This document shows positions 10,990-57,315 of a stretch of DNA of 64,000 nucleotides, piece after piece. The translations under genes and the position numbers were made by a program. Each line of letters begins with the position of its first letter. Position 1 is the stretch's first letter. The notes beneath the pieces are model-generated. The model made no database searches and was not told where the DNA came from. It saw only the letters and a program-made list of their open reading frames with translations. Origin of the DNA: Acidobacteriota bacterium (GTDB lineage: Bacteria > Acidobacteriota > Terriglobia > Acidiferrales > UBA7541). The stretch lies in assembly GCA_003223325.1 (NCBI GenBank), contig QHYS01000166.1, forward strand, positions 1 to 64,000, given 5' to 3'.

Positions 10990-11556
10990 GTGTACCGTTT
11001 GTCAGCTAGGAGGTGCAAGTCCTCTTCACAACGTGATGGACGTGAAGTGATAGCGAAGCGCAAGGGCGTCACCGTGAGGTGGGGTCTGAAGGAAGCGCGG
11101 AGCAAAAGCGCGAACCGATGTACAAAAACCGGATCTGAGGCATACGGTGCCGGACGAGCGGGCAAGTGACCACGAAGTCCGTATCCATCAAAGGCACTGG
11201 TTGTAAATCCGGCGGTTGCGCGTCGAAGGCGGGCAAACTTACCTCGGGAGATTTGCCGTGGTCTCGAATACGAGACTGAGGGTCGAGTGATCGGCCCTGA
11301 CCGGACGGCAGAAGTCAGCATAGGGCAAAGTGGTCGCGGAAGCGACGAAGCCCGAACGGTCTCCGCAAGGGGTTAATGGGAGTGGTGAGTAAGTAGCGCG
11401 ACTCACGATATCGGGCTGCCCAACGCTTACTTTGTCTCACTCGGGATTCCGCCTTTGGCTAGGCGCCGTAGCTTAACCTACCGAATCGCCGTATACGGAC
11501 CCGTACGTACGGTGATGTGACAGGGACAGCGGGTGACCGCTTACCTATGTCGATTG
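10990..11556 (+). mobile_element. Group II intron lacking its reverse transcriptase ORF
   Basis: About 570 bases carry landmarks of bacterial group II introns in order: a GTG start, the GGAGGTGCAAGTCCTC stem-loop at about 11010, ACCGTGAGGTGGGGTCTGAAG, then GATCTGAGGCATACGGTGCC and CACGAAGTCCGT. TTGTAAATCCGGC and CGGACGGCAGAAGTCAGCAT follow; the latter normally precedes the maturase start. Domain V is at 11486-11515 (CGCCGTATACGG/CCGTACGTACGGTG) with catalytic triad CGC. A domain VI hairpin (AGCGG/CCGCT) then runs into TTACCTATGTCGAT. No maturase/RT gene remains: the space between domains I-III and V is about 150 bases. It could still splice if a protein is supplied in trans. The ends are approximate. 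Its place after a terminator points to class C. Confidence 0.75.
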
Positions 11557-50863: not shown

Positions 50864-51916
50864 ATGCGTCGCATTACCTTCGCAATTTTCGCGGCCGCAA
50901 TATTGTGTTGTGTACACCTCCATGCGCAGCAGCCGCAGCAGCCGCAGCAGCCGTCTCCGCCTTCAGCTCCCCCCGAACCTCCCTTAACCTCCGGGCAATC
51001 CATTCGCCAAAATGTAAACCTCGTGGATGTTTTGTTTACCGTCCTCAACAGGCAGAACAAGATCGTGGCCGATCTAAACCGCGACAATTTTCGGGTCTTC
51101 GATGATGACGCGGAGCAACAAGTGCGCTTCTTCAACCGGCAGACGGACATGCCTTTGCGGGTAGGCTTGTTGCTCGATACTTCTAATAGCATCCGCGACC
51201 GGCTTAAGTTTGAGCAGCAGGCGGCAATCGATTTCCTTTATAACGTGATCCGGCGTGATAAGGATCAAGCTTTCCTCATGACCGTGGACGATGAGCCAGA
51301 AATGGTTCAGGGATTTACGGGTGACCTCGACACGCTGCGCGAGATCATCCTGAAGCAGCGCGCCGGAGGCGGGACGGCGCTTTATGATGCGATCTACCAG
51401 GCTTGCCAGCAACTGCTCAAGCTCCCCCCTTCGGTCGGCAATCCCGATCGGGATCTGCGTCCCGTGCTGGTCGTTATCAGCGATGGCGACGATAACTTGA
51501 GCCGCCACTCACGCGGAGAGGCGCTGGAGATCGCGCAGCGGGCCGGCATCGTTATTTACACCATCAGCACGAGCACGAATTGGATCGTTACCGACCAGGA
51601 GGCCGGGCGAGGCGATCTCTCCAACCGGAAATATATGAAAGACGAAGGGGACAAGGTTCTGCAACAGTTTTCCGATGAAAGCGGTGGCCGCGCCTTCTTC
51701 CCGTACCACGTCGACGATCTGGCCCAGTCATTTGCCTATATCGGAGATGAACTGCGCAGCCAGTATTCGCTCGCTTACGTGCCAATCCGCACGGGTGACG
51801 GCAAGTTCCACAGAATTCGCATTGAGGTGAACACGAAAGGCCTTCAGGTGCGCGCGCGCAAGGGTTACTACGCTATCCCTGCTGAAGGGGCAGCATCCTC
51901 CGCTTCGGCCCGCTGA
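50864..51916 (+). CDS. Secreted VWFA-domain protein (acidobacterial type), MIDAS intact
   Basis: 350 residues. A signal peptide leads to a Gln-Pro repeat (AQQPQQPQQPSPPSAPPEPP). NVNLVDVLFTVLNRQNKIVA, DLNRDNFRVFDDDAEQQVRF is the small N-terminal domain typical of this family. The VWA fold has the full MIDAS: DTSNS in RVGLLLDTSNSIRDRLK (about 105), Thr in GGGTALYDAIYQAC and Asp in VISDGDDNLSRHSR. The C-terminus (LRSQYSLAYVPIRTGDGKFH, RARKGYYAIP) is the family end. Probably periplasmic, with metal-dependent protein binding; partner unknown. First of three in a row. Confidence 0.9.
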   Translation: MRRITFAIFAAAILCCVHLHAQQPQQPQQPSPPSAPPEPPLTSGQSIRQNVNLVDVLFTVLNRQNKIVADLNRDNFRVFDDDAEQQVRFFNRQTDMPLRVGLLLDTSNSIRDRLKFEQQAAIDFLYNVIRRDKDQAFLMTVDDEPEMVQGFTGDLDTLREIILKQRAGGGTALYDAIYQACQQLLKLPPSVGNPDRDLRPVLVVISDGDDNLSRHSRGEALEIAQRAGIVIYTISTSTNWIVTDQEAGRGDLSNRKYMKDEGDKVLQQFSDESGGRAFFPYHVDDLAQSFAYIGDELRSQYSLAYVPIRTGDGKFHRIRIEVNTKGLQVRARKGYYAIPAEGAASSASAR

Positions 51917-51924
51917 ATCAAGTC

Positions 51925-52887
51925 TTAATTTTTCGAGGCATAGTAGCCGCGGCGGGTGAGGACGTCCAGATCTTTGCGCATCGTATCTACCTTGATCTTA
52001 CGGTAGCCTCCATCCCGCGCCGTGTTGGTCGAATAGTAGCCGAGGGTATACTGGCTGCGTAGCTCTTCGCTGATCTGATCGAAAGCTTCTTCCAACTTCT
52101 TCTCATTCCGGACGACGATCGTGCGGCCGCCGGTTTCGTCCGTCAGTTTCTTGGCGACACTCTCATTCCCGCCGCCGAAGTGAGGATCGGCGATGAGCAG
52201 GATGTGCACCACGGTATCGGTGCGCTGTGCAGCCTCGATGGCGTCCTGAAGCTTTAGGGTACTGCCTTCGTCCTGGGCGTCGGTGAGGATTACCAGCGCC
52301 TTGCGGCCGGCTTCTTCCGCAAGTCTGTCGTGACACGCGGCGTAGACCGCATCGTAGAAGACGGTTCCGGGAATCTGTTGTGCAAGAGGCCCCTGCGAGC
52401 TGGGCGCATTGATACGCGCGCGATTAATGGCGCGATCAAGTCTGCTTTGATCGTCGGTAAGATCGGCCAGCAGGTCTGAATCCGTGTCAAAGCTGACCAC
52501 CATGGCGAGATCGCCCTTGCGCAGCACGCGGGAGAGGAAGCGGACTGCGGCTTCCTGCTCGGCGCCGAGGGTATTTTGCTCGCTGCCGCTGGTGTCGATC
52601 AAAAGGCCGAGAGTGATCGGCAGGTTCGATTCACGCGAAAAAAAGGAGATCTTCTGCTCGGTACTGTCTTCGGTGATTTTGAAATCGTTCTGCTCCAGGT
52701 GGGAAATGATCTGCTTGGTTTTCTTGTCGCGCACCGTAGCGAACAGGTTGACGAGATTGACCTGCACGCGAATGCCCTGCTGCGAGCCTTCCGAATTCTG
52801 GCTTCCCCGGAGGGAGGACCCGGAGAAGAGCAGCAGAACACCCAGTGCTCCGGTGAAAAGTTTGAGGCTGAGACGTTCCGCCCTCAT
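51925..52887 (-). CDS. Secreted VWFA-domain protein (acidobacterial type), MIDAS intact
   Basis: 320 residues from the ATG at 52887 (GGAG eight bases before it). Signal: KLFTGALGVLLLFSGSSLRG. The N-terminal domain is RVQVNLVNLFATVRDKKTKQ, HLEQNDFKITEDSTEQKISF. The MIDAS is DTSGS in TLGLLIDTSGSEQNTLGAEQ, Thr in GTVFYDAVYAACHD and Asp in LVILTDAQDEGS. The end is LRSQYTLGYYSTNTARDGGY, LTRRGYYASKN. It is convergent with the first copy (eight bases between stops) and divergent from the third. Confidence 0.9.
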   Translation of the reverse strand: MRAERLSLKLFTGALGVLLLFSGSSLRGSQNSEGSQQGIRVQVNLVNLFATVRDKKTKQIISHLEQNDFKITEDSTEQKISFFSRESNLPITLGLLIDTSGSEQNTLGAEQEAAVRFLSRVLRKGDLAMVVSFDTDSDLLADLTDDQSRLDRAINRARINAPSSQGPLAQQIPGTVFYDAVYAACHDRLAEEAGRKALVILTDAQDEGSTLKLQDAIEAAQRTDTVVHILLIADPHFGGGNESVAKKLTDETGGRTIVVRNEKKLEEAFDQISEELRSQYTLGYYSTNTARDGGYRKIKVDTMRKDLDVLTRRGYYASKN

Positions 52888-52938
52888 CGTATAATCTCCA
52901 TTAGATGTGATGTTCCCCTTACGATGCGCCATCGCCCT

Positions 52939-54057
52939 ATGAAGGATGCGCGCCAGATTTCGTCCTCGTTTCGAAGACTGAGATCACCTTGGAATGGTCG
53001 GTCCGTGGGTCTTTCGCGTCAGCTCGCTGTGCGGGCGTTGCTCTTCGGTCTCGCCATTTTGCCTGGGAAAGCCGCGCAAACTAGCCCTTCCCCGATCCCG
53101 CAACAGCCTCAGGTGCAAGAACAACCGTATGACCCGCGCGCTAAGATTCGCTCGACCGTTGAACTGGTTGTCGCCCCGGTGACGGTAAAAGACTCAAAGG
53201 GCAATCTTGTCGACGATATTCGCAAAGATGAGTTCCGTATTTTCGAAGATGGCGTGGAACAACAGCTCTCACTGTTTTCGGCTGACGCCTTCCCGCTTTC
53301 CGCCGTGGTCCTGCTGGACGACGACCTGAAGCCCAAGGCCGCCGGGGAATTGCAGAAGAGCCTTCTCGCCATCGCCGGCGCCTTCAGCGAATCCGACGAA
53401 GTGGCATTGGCCAGATTTGCGTCGTTCTTTACACCCGTTATGGAGTTTACCCCAGACAATGATCGCTTAATGGCTGAACTCAAACGGCTCTTTTCAGGCG
53501 ACGAGTCCTTTCCCGATCCGGAATCGACCGCACCTCACCCTAAGGCCGGCGACCAGCCCATTCCCGGTGCGCCCACTGGCCCGCAGCAATCGGTGGCCGA
53601 CAAGACTACCAAGCACGTTGATGACGCCATCCACGCGGCGGCCGAAGCTTTGCGCGGGCGCGATCGCGAACGGCGCAAGGTAATCATCCTAGTTTCCGAC
53701 GGGGTGGATGCCAGGACCAACACCTATACCTACGATCAGACCTTGGCGCTGCTGCTCTCCTCCGATGTATCCGTCTACGCCATCGGCACCGAGGCTGCAC
53801 TGTTGCGTCGCGGCGCCAGTCCCCTTTCCCGTTACGCGCGCGCGACCGGGGGCGACACCTATTTCGTCAATAACGTGCCGGCCCTTTCGCGTGCTTACGC
53901 TCGGGTGGCCGAAGAAGCGCGCCACCAATACACGCTCGCCTATGTGCCCGCAGGCACCGATCGCACCCGAAATTATCACTCCATCGAGGTGCGCGTGCGG
54001 CGGCCCGGGCTCGAGGTGCTTTCACGCGACGGATACTACCTCGTTCGACTGCCCTGA
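52939..54057 (+). CDS. Secreted VWFA-domain protein with degenerate MIDAS
   Basis: 372 residues from the ATG at 52939; 52924 and a GTG at 53005 are alternatives, and the last would give the most ordinary signal peptide (LSRQLAVRALLFGLAILPGK). The family domain is STVELVVAPVTVKDSKGNLV, DDIRKDEFRIFEDGVEQQLS. The first MIDAS motif is changed: VVLLDDDLKPKAAGE replaces DxSxS, while SDGVDARTNTYTYD keeps the later Asp. An inserted loop (SFPDPESTAPHPKAGDQPIP) separates the halves. The end is ARHQYTLAYVPAGTDRTRNY and LSRDGYYLVRLP. Metal binding as in the other two is doubtful. Confidence 0.88.
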   Translation: MKDARQISSSFRRLRSPWNGRSVGLSRQLAVRALLFGLAILPGKAAQTSPSPIPQQPQVQEQPYDPRAKIRSTVELVVAPVTVKDSKGNLVDDIRKDEFRIFEDGVEQQLSLFSADAFPLSAVVLLDDDLKPKAAGELQKSLLAIAGAFSESDEVALARFASFFTPVMEFTPDNDRLMAELKRLFSGDESFPDPESTAPHPKAGDQPIPGAPTGPQQSVADKTTKHVDDAIHAAAEALRGRDRERRKVIILVSDGVDARTNTYTYDQTLALLLSSDVSVYAIGTEAALLRRGASPLSRYARATGGDTYFVNNVPALSRAYARVAEEARHQYTLAYVPAGTDRTRNYHSIEVRVRRPGLEVLSRDGYYLVRLP

Positions 54058-54084
54058 GGTCGGTACCGCGTGCAGAAGTTTCGC

Positions 54085-54113
54085 TTGACATCAAAAGCTG
54101 CGGACCGTATAGA
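54085..54113 (+). promoter_or_regulatory. Consensus sigma70-type promoter
   Basis: TTGACA at 54085-54090 and TATAGA at 54108-54113 are separated by exactly 17 bases, five of six matches in the -10 and all six in the -35. Transcription would start near 54120, in a gap with no protein gene downstream on this strand. Confidence 0.75.
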
Positions 54114-54119
54114 AAGAAT

Positions 54120-54280
54120 TGCGGCGCATTCTCGCGTGACGCGAAAATGCGCACAGATGCCCGAGGGGAGAAGCCTCTCGACGAGAGGCAATGCGCGGCA
54201 AGGCGGAAGAGATGGCCCGAGTTGACTTTCTCTTCCTGTTACTTCGAAGCGGGACGCGACGGGGCGTCCCGCTTTTTTTG
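54120..54280 (+). ncRNA. Candidate small RNA, about 160 nt, unknown family
   Basis: Follows the promoter and ends at a strong terminator. Three further hairpins with perfect or near-perfect stems are seen. The first is 54124-54152: GCGCATT/AATGCGC with inner TCGCG/CGCGA and loop TGA. The second is 54173-54189: GCCTCTC/GAGAGGC, loop GAC. The third is 54205-54236: GGAAGAGA/TCTCTTCC with a 16-base loop. No frame of useful length is present. The promoter, stems and terminator together make a stand-alone RNA gene likely. It is not a tRNA, and I could not match it to 6S, SRP or tmRNA. Confidence 0.6.
54248..54279 (+). terminator. Intrinsic terminator of the candidate small RNA
   Basis: AGCGGGACGC (54248-54257) pairs with GCGTCCCGCT (54264-54273) over a six-base loop, followed by seven T. 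It could also end transcription from the third VWFA gene; it lies 13 bases before the convergent helicase stop. Confidence 0.85.
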
Positions 54281-54291
54281 CATACCAGCCC

Positions 54292-57200
54292 CTAATCGCG
54301 CTTGAGGGATGAGTGGACGGCTCCGCGTTCTGCATCATCGTCCGCCTGACGTCGCGCCGGCCGGGATTCTTGGGTAGGACACAGAGAGCGGAATTCGCAG
54401 TTTTTGCAAATGAATCCTGGGCGGGCGGGAAACTCTCGCGCACGAATGTCTGCAGCCACTTCCTGGATCGTGCCGCGCACTTCCTGCAACTGCTTTTCCT
54501 CGCGTGAAGCGGAGACGCACTGGTTGTTTTGCAGGTTGTAATAGATCAGTCGGGCCGGCGTCACATCGAGCATCTCACGCGCCGCCAGGGCATAGATGCT
54601 CAATTGCAGGTCTTTTTGGGCGCGTGTCTCTGACTTTGGCTTCCCCGTCTTGTAATCGATAATTTCCACTTCTCCGGGAGCGACGCGGTTGATCTGGTCC
54701 ATCCGTCCGATTAACTCCACGCCATTGTCGCATTCGATCGCGAAGCGCTTTTCTTGCGCAAGGACGTGGGCCGGCGCGGCGAGGTTGCTGGCATAAAACG
54801 CCCGTAATTGCTCGATGCCGTCGCTCAGGTAAAGCTCTTCCTGGTGGCGATCTTCGAAACCGGCGGAAGTCCACTCACGCCGGAAGGTCATCACCACTTC
54901 CTCGAAGCTGAGCCGCAGGCCCTTGCGCAACGCCGCGATAAATTGGCGAATCGTTGTGTGGATCACGTTGCCGAAAGTAGTTGCCGCGCTCGGGCCGCTC
55001 CTTATGCCCCAGACGTGGCTAAAGAGATATTTCTGCGGGCACTTCTGGTAGGTCTCGATCGCTGAGGCGCTCAACTGCAAGGGTTCGAAAACTGGCGGAC
55101 GGTAGCGCTCCGCCCAGCGAGCGATACGCGAATAAACCCGGGCACGATTGCGAACTTCTGGAAAGAGCGGCAGGTCGGCAGCCGCCGGGACACCTCGCGC
55201 CGTTGTCGAATGCAGAACAGGCGCAGCCTGTTCCACGTTGTGCTTCGCAACATGAGGAGCGCTCAGGATATCTTCGAGGAAGACTGAGGGCCGGGAGTGC
55301 TTATGCACAACCGTTGTCAGCGTGAGTCGTTCGCGGGCTCGTGTGATGGCCACGTAGAATAAGCGCCGCTCCTCCTGAATATGGAAATCGCCGCGGGGCA
55401 ATTCTTCCTTCATGAGCGCTTCAGGAAACTCGAGCACGGCGGCCCTCGGCGCCATCGGAAATCCGCGGTGCGTCAGCCGCAAAACAAACACATGGTCGAA
55501 TTCCAGCCCTTTCGCTGCGTGCACCGTCATCAGTTGAACAGCATCGGCGGATTCCTGTTCCAGATTAATTTGGCCCCCAGCCTGTGCGAAGTAATCCAGA
55601 TATTCAACGAACTCCGACAGTTGGGACGTTTCGCTCTTGGACTGCCATTCGCGAATAAATTGCGCAAGCCGCCGGAGGTAGGGTTGGTCGGTGGACCGAA
55701 TACTGAGTGCGAGCTCCAGCCATTTTGCCAGCGCCTCATACAGATCAGCCGCATTCATGCTACCGCTTCGCACACGCAGTTCGGTCAAGCCGGCGATGAG
55801 ATCGTTTGTGGCGGGCGAACGGCCGCTGAAGGGCAGTTCCGCTTGCGGTGATTGAAGCGCATCCCAGAGCGAACTCCTGAATTTGGCGGCCCGCTCGCAA
55901 AGCCGCACCAAGTCCGCGGGCGCGAGTCCCCATGCCGGCGCGGCCAGCACGCGAGCGCAAGCAATGTTGTCCGCCGGATGCACGATCAGTCGCAGATAGG
56001 CCAGCAGATCGCGTACCAGCGGGTGATCGAGAATCGAAAGATTGCGAATCACGAAGGGGACGCCGCGTTCTTCGAGCGCGCTAACCAGTTCCGCGCGGTG
56101 TCCATGAATGCGATAGAGAGCGGCGAACTTCCGCCAGTTCAGGCCAGCCCCGTGCAGGCCCTCGATTTCGGCGGCAATCCAGCGCGCTTCATCCTGCGCG
56201 GATGCAAATTCCACAATACGAACTTTCTCGCCCTCGCGTTTGTGCGGCAGCAGTTCGTTCTTCGGTACGAGAGGCGAGTGATCGATGAAGGCGACTACCT
56301 GGGCGGCGGTGCGGAGGATGCGCGCCGTGGACCGGTAGTTATCGACCAGGGGCTGCACGAACCGCGAGGCGCCGGCACTGTCACCGCGAGGAACATAGGC
56401 GAAGCGCTCCAGGAAAATTGTAAAGCTGCCGAACGACGCGCCGCGAAAGCGGTATATCGCCTGCGCGTTATCGCCAACGGCGACTACATTGCGATGATCC
56501 CCCGTGAGTTCCCAGAGCAGCTCGATTTGGGCGATGTTCGTGTCCTGGAATTCGTCCACCAGGATGTAGTGATAACGCGCGCGAAGCGCGGCAGCAAAAA
56601 TCGGATCCCTACGCAATAAATGGACGGCGTCGAGCAGTTGCATGCCAAATGTAAGAAGGTTGCGTTCGCGAAGCAGGCGGTCGCTGGTTCGATAGGCTCG
56701 GGCGATCTCCCGCTGTTCGGCAATTCTCTCCTCGCGCGCGCTCTGTTTGTCCTCGGCAAGGCTGGGTTTCTCGCGCGCGTAGCTTTCGGCCAATGATTCG
56801 ATATAGCGCTCGTAATCATCCGGCGTAACCAATTCATCCTGGCAGCGCGAGAAAAATTTCACGAAATCGCCAAGGAATTGGCCCGGCTCCGCCAGCCGGC
56901 GATAGCGCTCCAGCGCCAGAACGGCAAGATTCCGGCGCAAGAGAATCCAATGATCGACAGCGTCTAGCGTTTGCAGCTTGGGATTGCGCTCGAGAAGCAG
57001 CGCGTTGCAGAACGCGTGAAACGTCCCCACGAAAACGGCGTGGCCGCGCTCGCCGGCGGCGCGAATCACGCGATTCTTCATCTCGCCCGCGGCCCTGTCT
57101 GTGAAGGTCAGCGCGAGAATGGATTCGCCCGAAAGCTCAGGATTGGACTCCAGCAGATACCGGATTCGCTCGGTGATAACACGGGTTTTGCCGGTGCCCG

Positions 57201-57315
57201 CGCCCGCGACGACCAGCAGCGGTCCTTCGCCGTGACGCACGGCGGCGCGTTGTCGGGGATTGAGTTCGTCTCCAAATTTCGCTGCCGGTGCCGTCAGCTC
57301 GAAAAGATTCCCCAC
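54292..57315 (-). CDS. UvrD/PcrA-type helicase fused to a PD-(D/E)XK Fe-S nuclease
   Basis: 1007 residues. The superfamily 1 helicase has Walker A (VVAGAGTGKTRVITERIRYL, about 37-44), SILALTFTDRAAGEMKNRVI, DEFQDTN (Walker B), VAVGDNAQAIYRFRGASFGS, QPLVDNYRST, MTVHAAKGLEFDHVFVL and VAITRARERLTL. The C-terminal 250 residues are a RecB/AddB-like nuclease: SASAIETYQKCPQKYLF, LIGRMDQINRV, EIIDYKTGKP (Asp-x-Lys active site), and a Cys cluster FICKNCEFRSLC. With the Cys of YQKCPQ it gives the four-Cys iron-sulfur staple of AddB and Cas4. It probably acts on DNA ends in repair. A single-chain form of the AddAB idea; no AddB partner is present. Confidence 0.9.
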   Translation of the reverse strand: MGNLFELTAPAAKFGDELNPRQRAAVRHGEGPLLVVAGAGTGKTRVITERIRYLLESNPELSGESILALTFTDRAAGEMKNRVIRAAGERGHAVFVGTFHAFCNALLLERNPKLQTLDAVDHWILLRRNLAVLALERYRRLAEPGQFLGDFVKFFSRCQDELVTPDDYERYIESLAESYAREKPSLAEDKQSAREERIAEQREIARAYRTSDRLLRERNLLTFGMQLLDAVHLLRRDPIFAAALRARYHYILVDEFQDTNIAQIELLWELTGDHRNVVAVGDNAQAIYRFRGASFGSFTIFLERFAYVPRGDSAGASRFVQPLVDNYRSTARILRTAAQVVAFIDHSPLVPKNELLPHKREGEKVRIVEFASAQDEARWIAAEIEGLHGAGLNWRKFAALYRIHGHRAELVSALEERGVPFVIRNLSILDHPLVRDLLAYLRLIVHPADNIACARVLAAPAWGLAPADLVRLCERAAKFRSSLWDALQSPQAELPFSGRSPATNDLIAGLTELRVRSGSMNAADLYEALAKWLELALSIRSTDQPYLRRLAQFIREWQSKSETSQLSEFVEYLDYFAQAGGQINLEQESADAVQLMTVHAAKGLEFDHVFVLRLTHRGFPMAPRAAVLEFPEALMKEELPRGDFHIQEERRLFYVAITRARERLTLTTVVHKHSRPSVFLEDILSAPHVAKHNVEQAAPVLHSTTARGVPAAADLPLFPEVRNRARVYSRIARWAERYRPPVFEPLQLSASAIETYQKCPQKYLFSHVWGIRSGPSAATTFGNVIHTTIRQFIAALRKGLRLSFEEVVMTFRREWTSAGFEDRHQEELYLSDGIEQLRAFYASNLAAPAHVLAQEKRFAIECDNGVELIGRMDQINRVAPGEVEIIDYKTGKPKSETRAQKDLQLSIYALAAREMLDVTPARLIYYNLQNNQCVSASREEKQLQEVRGTIQEVAADIRAREFPARPGFICKNCEFRSLCPTQESRPARRQADDDAERGAVHSSLKRD

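What the first reader, a model, noticed from the sequence alone, without database searches (positions are those of the whole stretch)
54060..54291. Unassigned small RNA gene with textbook promoter, three hairpins and terminator
Seen: TTGACA, a 17-base gap, TATAGA; then hairpins at 54124-54152, 54173-54189 and 54205-54236, and a 10-bp terminator stem with seven T, all within 200 bases and without a reading frame. Known: stand-alone bacterial sRNAs have this architecture. Inference: an expressed structured RNA of about 160 nt between the VWFA and helicase genes. I cannot match it to 6S, SRP RNA or tmRNA; known acidobacterial motifs such as Acido-1 or Acido-Lenti-1 should be tested.
Basis: partly seen in the sequence, partly recalled or inferred. 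Interest (0 to 1): 0.65.

Follow-up and report, generated by a model that had tools for sequence, protein, structure and literature searches.

The report
Acidobacterial small RNA, formerly peptide-coding?
The window holds a real, self-contained small RNA gene that matches no catalogued RNA family, and in related soil bacteria the same little transcription unit also encodes a tiny lysine-rich peptide, so here it looks like a transcript that kept its RNA role after losing its peptide.

Summary
TTGACA (54085-54090), a 17-nt spacer and TATAGA (54108-54113) are followed by three hairpins and a strong intrinsic terminator with seven T, predicting a transcript of about 160 nt (~54120-54279). No Rfam family matches, Acido-1 and Acido-Lenti-1 included; the genome's 6S RNA lies elsewhere. 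Two of three sampled congeners carry the element at the same place with an invariant promoter and core, while flanking fourfold sites are only 62-69% identical to the more distant one. Hairpin 1 and an outer helix show three compensatory double changes. Indels rule out a conserved reading frame. The unexpected part: the same convergent gap, between an acidobacterial VWFA gene (TIGR03436) and a UvrD/PD-(D/E)XK helicase, holds a promoter-to-terminator unit in about 25 of 38 acidobacterial loci examined. In 11 it encodes a 13-18-aa lysine-rich peptide with a Shine-Dalgarno and codon-like divergence. In the window's genus and two other lineages the peptide ORF is absent but the GGGAGA...AUGCGCG core remains; two loci have both. 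Best reading: an sRNA gene related to a dual-function transcript that lost its ORF more than once. Expression and target are untested. One congener lacks it, so it is not essential.

The parts
54085..54113 (+). sigma-70-type promoter TTGACA-17-TATAGA; predicted start about 54119-54121
   Evidence: 1 found vs 0.09 expected; both hexamers invariant in three species while the 28 nt before them are 64-75% identical; TTGAC-type promoters at the same place in the relatives' gaps
54119..54201 (+). outer helix TTGC (54119-54122) with GCAA (54198-54201), enclosing hairpins 1 and 2; G-C to A-U compensation in G001. The 5' strand can extend it into an 11-bp alternative to hairpin 1
54124..54152 (+). hairpin 1 (P1)
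   Evidence: two compensatory double changes in three sequences, loop grows by 7 nt with the stem kept; P1 region mean z -1.9 over 17 ORF-less elements
54163..54171 (+). conserved purine stretch GAGGGGAGA
   Evidence: shared with L032, L058 and L068 and, as GGGAGA, with g3/g4 elements
54173..54189 (+). hairpin 2 (P2)
   Evidence: paired in all three species but no informative covariation
54190..54203 (+). conserved AATGCGCGGCAAGG; AUGCGCG is the most widely shared motif of the family
   Evidence: GGGAGA-N14-26-ATGCGCG once in 64 kb vs 0.08 expected
54205..54236 (+). hairpin 3 (P3); takes the place that the Lys-rich ORF has in L067 and L068
   Evidence: both arms (almost) invariant in genus; P3 regions of g4 elements mostly negative z
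54247..54279 (+). intrinsic terminator, stem 54249-54257/54264-54272, T7 54273-54279
52930..54057 (+). VWFA gene upstream (approximate start), TIGR03436 acidobact_VWFA; synteny marker
   Evidence: 162.8 bits, cut-off 81.25
54292..57315 (-). UvrD-type helicase with PD-(D/E)XK nuclease domain, convergent; synteny marker
   Evidence: PF00580, PF13361, PF12705

Best explanation
A stand-alone gene for a structured small RNA of about 160 nt. SHOWN by sequence: its own conserved promoter, three hairpins plus an outer helix, an intrinsic terminator, purifying selection in the genus, no conserved reading frame, and a homologous unit at the same locus in other Acidobacteriota, where some versions encode a 13-18-aa Lys-rich peptide. 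INFERRED: the RNA is transcribed from the TTGACA promoter and stopped at the U-tract. It acts as RNA, most likely in trans, through its invariant GGGGAGA and AAUGCGCGGCAAGG segments as pairing or protein-binding sites, the hairpins and U-tail serving stability or chaperone binding. The ancestral unit was probably a dual-function transcript (peptide plus RNA) whose peptide ORF was lost in the window's genus.
For: Promoter and terminator; fold z -3.2 to -3.8 for the window and G003. Homologues in G003 (89%) and G001 (78%) at the same synteny. Core and promoter nearly invariant vs fourfold-site identity 0.62-0.69 (win-G001) and 0.76-0.84 (win-G003). 3 double compensations, 96.6% of cells paired vs 37-55% when slid. 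Frame-breaking indels after the AUG in window genus, L032/L058 and g4. No Rfam match in window or 11 relatives. Same-locus units in relatives, with Lys-rich ORFs carrying SD and third-position-biased divergence (0.40 vs 0.08/0.16). L067 and L068 carry both features; L068 is the nearest relative of the window genus in the helicase tree (95/84).
Against: No transcript data. Only three sequences in the genus, so covariation is thin (20 of 500 shuffles reach it) and hairpins 2 and 3 do not vary. The window copy folds in silico preferably into the alternative to hairpin 1. The congener G002 lacks the element although the locus is intact. No target found. Hfq-like proteins match only at about the family cut-off. 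A covariance model of the genus form finds no other clear relative in the family, so homology to other forms rests on synteny, layout and short motifs.
Confidence: 0.72

Rival explanations
1. It is still a tiny-protein mRNA: AUG 54191 (in AAUGCGCGG) starts a short peptide (MRGKAEE...), with GGGGAGA as Shine-Dalgarno brought near by hairpin 2.
For: The AUG is conserved; GGGAGA resembles an SD; relatives at this locus do encode a peptide. The reading is MRG-like in many ORF-less forms.
Against: Frame lost after about 10 codons by 1-5-nt indels in the genus and within g4 and between L032 and L058; most frames run through the terminator without a stop. In L067 and L068 the real ORF lies in another frame. 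In g4 the differences are 0.30/0.39/0.49 by codon position.
Confidence: 0.12
2. It is only the 3' untranslated region and terminator of the VWFA mRNA; the hairpins protect its 3' end.
For: The promoter lies 28 nt after the VWFA stop codon and the terminator would end that mRNA too.
Against: A near-consensus promoter inside the segment is invariant in three species and repeated at the same place in most relatives; conservation begins at the -35 box. VWFA genes occur without the element (G002; several loci), and in L054 the element lies after the helicase with no VWFA gene found adjacent.
Confidence: 0.08
3. A decaying relic: in the window genus the unit lost its peptide and its RNA has no function any more.
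For: The peptide ORF is gone, G002 has lost the whole element, many loci lack it.
Against: Promoter, core, hairpin 3 arms and terminator are far better conserved than fourfold sites and than the adjacent 28 nt; compensatory changes.
Confidence: 0.08

Closest known systems
SgrS/SgrT-type dual-function sRNAs
   Same: Small intergenic transcript with own promoter and terminator; homologues with and without the small ORF. In Yersinia SgrS lacks the sgrT ORF and in E. coli O157:H7 the sgrT start is mutated (PMC4021124).
   Different: No sequence relation claimed; peptide here is 13-18 aa and Lys-rich, not ~40 aa; no pairing target, regulator or chaperone dependence known.
Acido-1 and Acido-Lenti-1 RNAs (RF01686, RF01687)
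   Same: Candidate structured noncoding RNAs of Acidobacteria (PMC2864571).
   Different: Neither appears in cmscan of 54050-54300 even at E<=10.
6S RNA (RF00013)
   Same: Stand-alone RNA of similar size.
   Different: A separate 6S gene scoring 53.6 bits lies on another contig; this element is a chain of hairpins and does not match the model.
suhB/mmgR sRNA (RF00519)
   Same: Best sub-threshold match (21.8 bits, E 0.016), mainly to the terminator half.
   Different: Gathering score is 41; match driven by a GC-rich terminator.

Membership tests
Stand-alone intergenic sRNA gene | own promoter | tested here: met
   TTGACA-17-TATAGA, invariant hexamers in three species; in silico only
Stand-alone intergenic sRNA gene | own intrinsic terminator | tested here: met
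Stand-alone intergenic sRNA gene | no conserved reading frame | tested here: met
   frame-breaking indels
Stand-alone intergenic sRNA gene | conserved secondary structure | tested here: met
   3 double compensations, though on only 3 sequences
Stand-alone intergenic sRNA gene | a discrete transcript is made | not testable with these tools
   no RNA-seq available
Dual-function (peptide-encoding) sRNA | small translated ORF in the same transcript | tested here: not met
   absent in the window genus; present in 11 relatives by sequence
Dual-function (peptide-encoding) sRNA | RNA-level base-pairing function | not testable with these tools
   no target established
6S RNA (RF00013) | match to covariance model | tested here: not met
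   true 6S elsewhere
Acido-1 / Acido-Lenti-1 | match to covariance model | tested here: not met
CsrB/RsmZ-type CsrA sponge | CsrA in the genome and several unpaired GGA motifs | tested here: not met
   no CsrA match in 4 genus genomes; three GGA in the element, two of them in stems

The most novel reading that the evidence does not exclude
An RNA family that matches no Rfam model, sitting in one conserved convergent gap of Acidobacteriota, in which a transcript for a tiny Lys-rich peptide has become a purely regulatory RNA at least three times: a natural series (peptide only, both, RNA only) for the change from mRNA to sRNA.
Probability: 0.4. Interest if true: 0.7.

Novelty: new member of a known kind. 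Interest (0 to 1): 0.55.

Why it matters
Few small RNAs are described in Acidobacteriota (from the papers seen here: Acido-1 and Acido-Lenti-1 among 104 motifs of PMC2864571). This locus gives one that can be found by synteny alone, with peptide-coding, mixed and ORF-less versions in related genera, so the passage between mRNA and sRNA can be traced. It also flags a tiny Lys-rich peptide in these bacteria for which I found no description.

Tried and rejected
Rfam at gathering and at E<=10: nothing credible. 6S: present elsewhere. Covariance model of the genus form over 89 family genomes: only the three known copies; next best 24 bits, E 0.001 per genome, not followed up. Pattern of the g4 core over 299 class genomes: convincing hits (0-1 mismatch) only in genus g4, plus G005 of g3 (same element as L066); the other 2-3-mismatch hits were not followed up and look like chance. 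MAFFT cannot align the variable hairpins of g4, so I used per-sequence fold statistics instead of an alignment-based covariation score for them. CsrA sponge: no CsrA. Targets: complement of the AUGCGCGGCAAGG segment; the apparent excess of sites in the genus (12 vs 1 for the reversed pattern in the own genome, the element itself included) was not tested against codon usage, and the one orthologous set of sites lies within a coding frame in the same sense as the sRNA.

Full report
OBSERVATION. Promoter: TTGACA 54085-54090, 17 nt, TATAGA 54108-54113; such a promoter (TTGACA-N16-18-TATA) occurs once in the 64 kb against 0.09 expected. Hairpins: 54124-54152, 54173-54189, 54205-54236. Terminator: 54247-54279 with T7. 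The 167-nt unit folds at z -3.6, no shuffle of 200 as stable. The generic consensus scan gives no support by itself.

SURROUNDINGS. Upstream on the same strand is a VWFA gene of the acidobacterial family TIGR03436, stop at 54057; downstream, convergent, a UvrD-type helicase with a PD-(D/E)XK nuclease domain, stop at 54292. So the RNA cannot be a leader of the next gene.

RELATIVES IN THE GENUS. Three other genomes of the genus are held. Two carry the element at 89% and 78% identity in the same gap. The third, G002, has the helicase and VWFA genes (69% and 56% identical) but a short gap without the element. Identity by part: hexamers 100%, AAUGCGCGG... core 94-100%, hairpin 3 arms 88-100%, terminator stem-loop 96-100%; 28 nt before the promoter 64-75%, loop of hairpin 3 52-71%. 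(The part boundaries in that script are one base off at the hexamers; the result is the same on the alignment.) Fourfold sites of the two flanking genes: 62-69% (window to G001), 76-84% (window to G003). Structure counts on the model-fitted alignment: 29 pairs, 96.6% of cells paired (37-55% when slid), three double compensations, two in hairpin 1 and one in the outer helix. This is suggestive but thin: 20 of 500 shuffles reach it. Indels of 1-5 nt after the only conserved AUG break the frame, so the RNA is not coding in this genus.

NOT A LISTED FAMILY. No Rfam match at gathering score in the window part or in 11 relatives; the best at E<=10 is suhB/mmgR at half its gathering score. 6S RNA is elsewhere in all four genus genomes. 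CsrA was not found. Hfq-like proteins match at about the family cut-off.

THE SAME LOCUS ELSEWHERE. One scan of genome contigs with the helicase gave about 38 acidobacterial loci, most with the same VWFA gene convergent to it. Their gaps often hold a TTGAC-17/18-TATA promoter soon after the VWFA stop and an intrinsic terminator about 200 nt on. Three versions occur. (i) ORF-less: window genus, L032/L058, and a clade of genera g3/g4 (L034, L037, L038, L041, L044, L047, L051, L054, L057, L066, plus L141, L145, L148 and L155), all with GGGAGA or nearly so, 15-26 nt, AUGCGCG. In g4 the hairpin stems vary in sequence yet stay paired; the P1 region has mean z -1.9 over 17 ORF-less elements and P3 mean z -1.1. 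(ii) Peptide form: nine loci (L036, L039, L042, L045, L046, L050, L052, L053, L055) with an SD and MKKKAKKDEKKAPKKGK-like ORFs of 14-18 codons; differences by codon position 0.08, 0.16, 0.40. (iii) Both: L067 (16 aa) and L068 (13 aa), with GGGAGA...AAUGCGCG directly followed by AUGAAGAAGG.... A strict pattern for the peptide form hits only genus g6 in 299 class genomes.

HISTORY. In the helicase tree the window genus is sister to L068 (both features, support 95/84), L032/L058 fall beside the peptide clade, and L067 is at the base of the g3/g4 side. ORF presence needs three losses, or three independent gains of nearly the same peptide at the same site; losses are more plausible, but the root is only the midpoint and L067 sits on a long branch. 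13 of the 38 loci have neither version, so the unit is dispensable.

MECHANISM. Shown: conserved transcription signals, conserved structure, no conserved frame. Inferred: a trans-acting RNA using GAGGGGAGA and AAUGCGCGGCAAGG. A quick search for complementary sites gave no usable target. The 5' arm of hairpin 1 can also pair with 54190-54201 and hide the AUGCGCG motif; folding favours this in the window but hairpin 1 in the relatives. I mention it as a possible switch, without support beyond one compensated pair, which both states share.

PRECEDENT. ORF-bearing and ORF-less homologues of one sRNA are known for SgrS: Yersinia SgrS lacks sgrT and O157:H7 has a mutated start (PMC4021124). Peptide-coding sRNAs are common: at least about 10% of sRNAs in the 14 species of PMC5521070. 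Hence a new member of a known kind, with an unusually readable history.

Noticed in passing
L036, L039, L042, L045, L046, L050, L052, L053, L055, L067, L068; L158-L165: Tiny Lys-rich peptide genes (13-18 aa, e.g. MKKKAKKDEKKAPKKGK) with own promoter, SD and terminator; no description found here.
   Followed up: partly
window 50864-54057: Three TIGR03436 VWFA genes in a row (+, -, +); the same triple arrangement recurs in many relatives.
   Followed up: no
window 11068-11554: Group II intron parts (RF02001 at 124.8 bits and Intron_gpII domain).
   Followed up: no
L156 (G002): Congener with intact VWFA-helicase locus but no small RNA element: a clean loss.
   Followed up: yes
window 54119-54130 with 54190-54201: An 11-bp pairing that excludes hairpin 1 and sequesters the AUGCGCG motif; a possible two-state fold.
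   Followed up: partly
G000:C216:18727-18867: Hfq-like domain in a 122-aa frame, just under the Pfam cut-off; similar matches in all four genus genomes.
   Followed up: no
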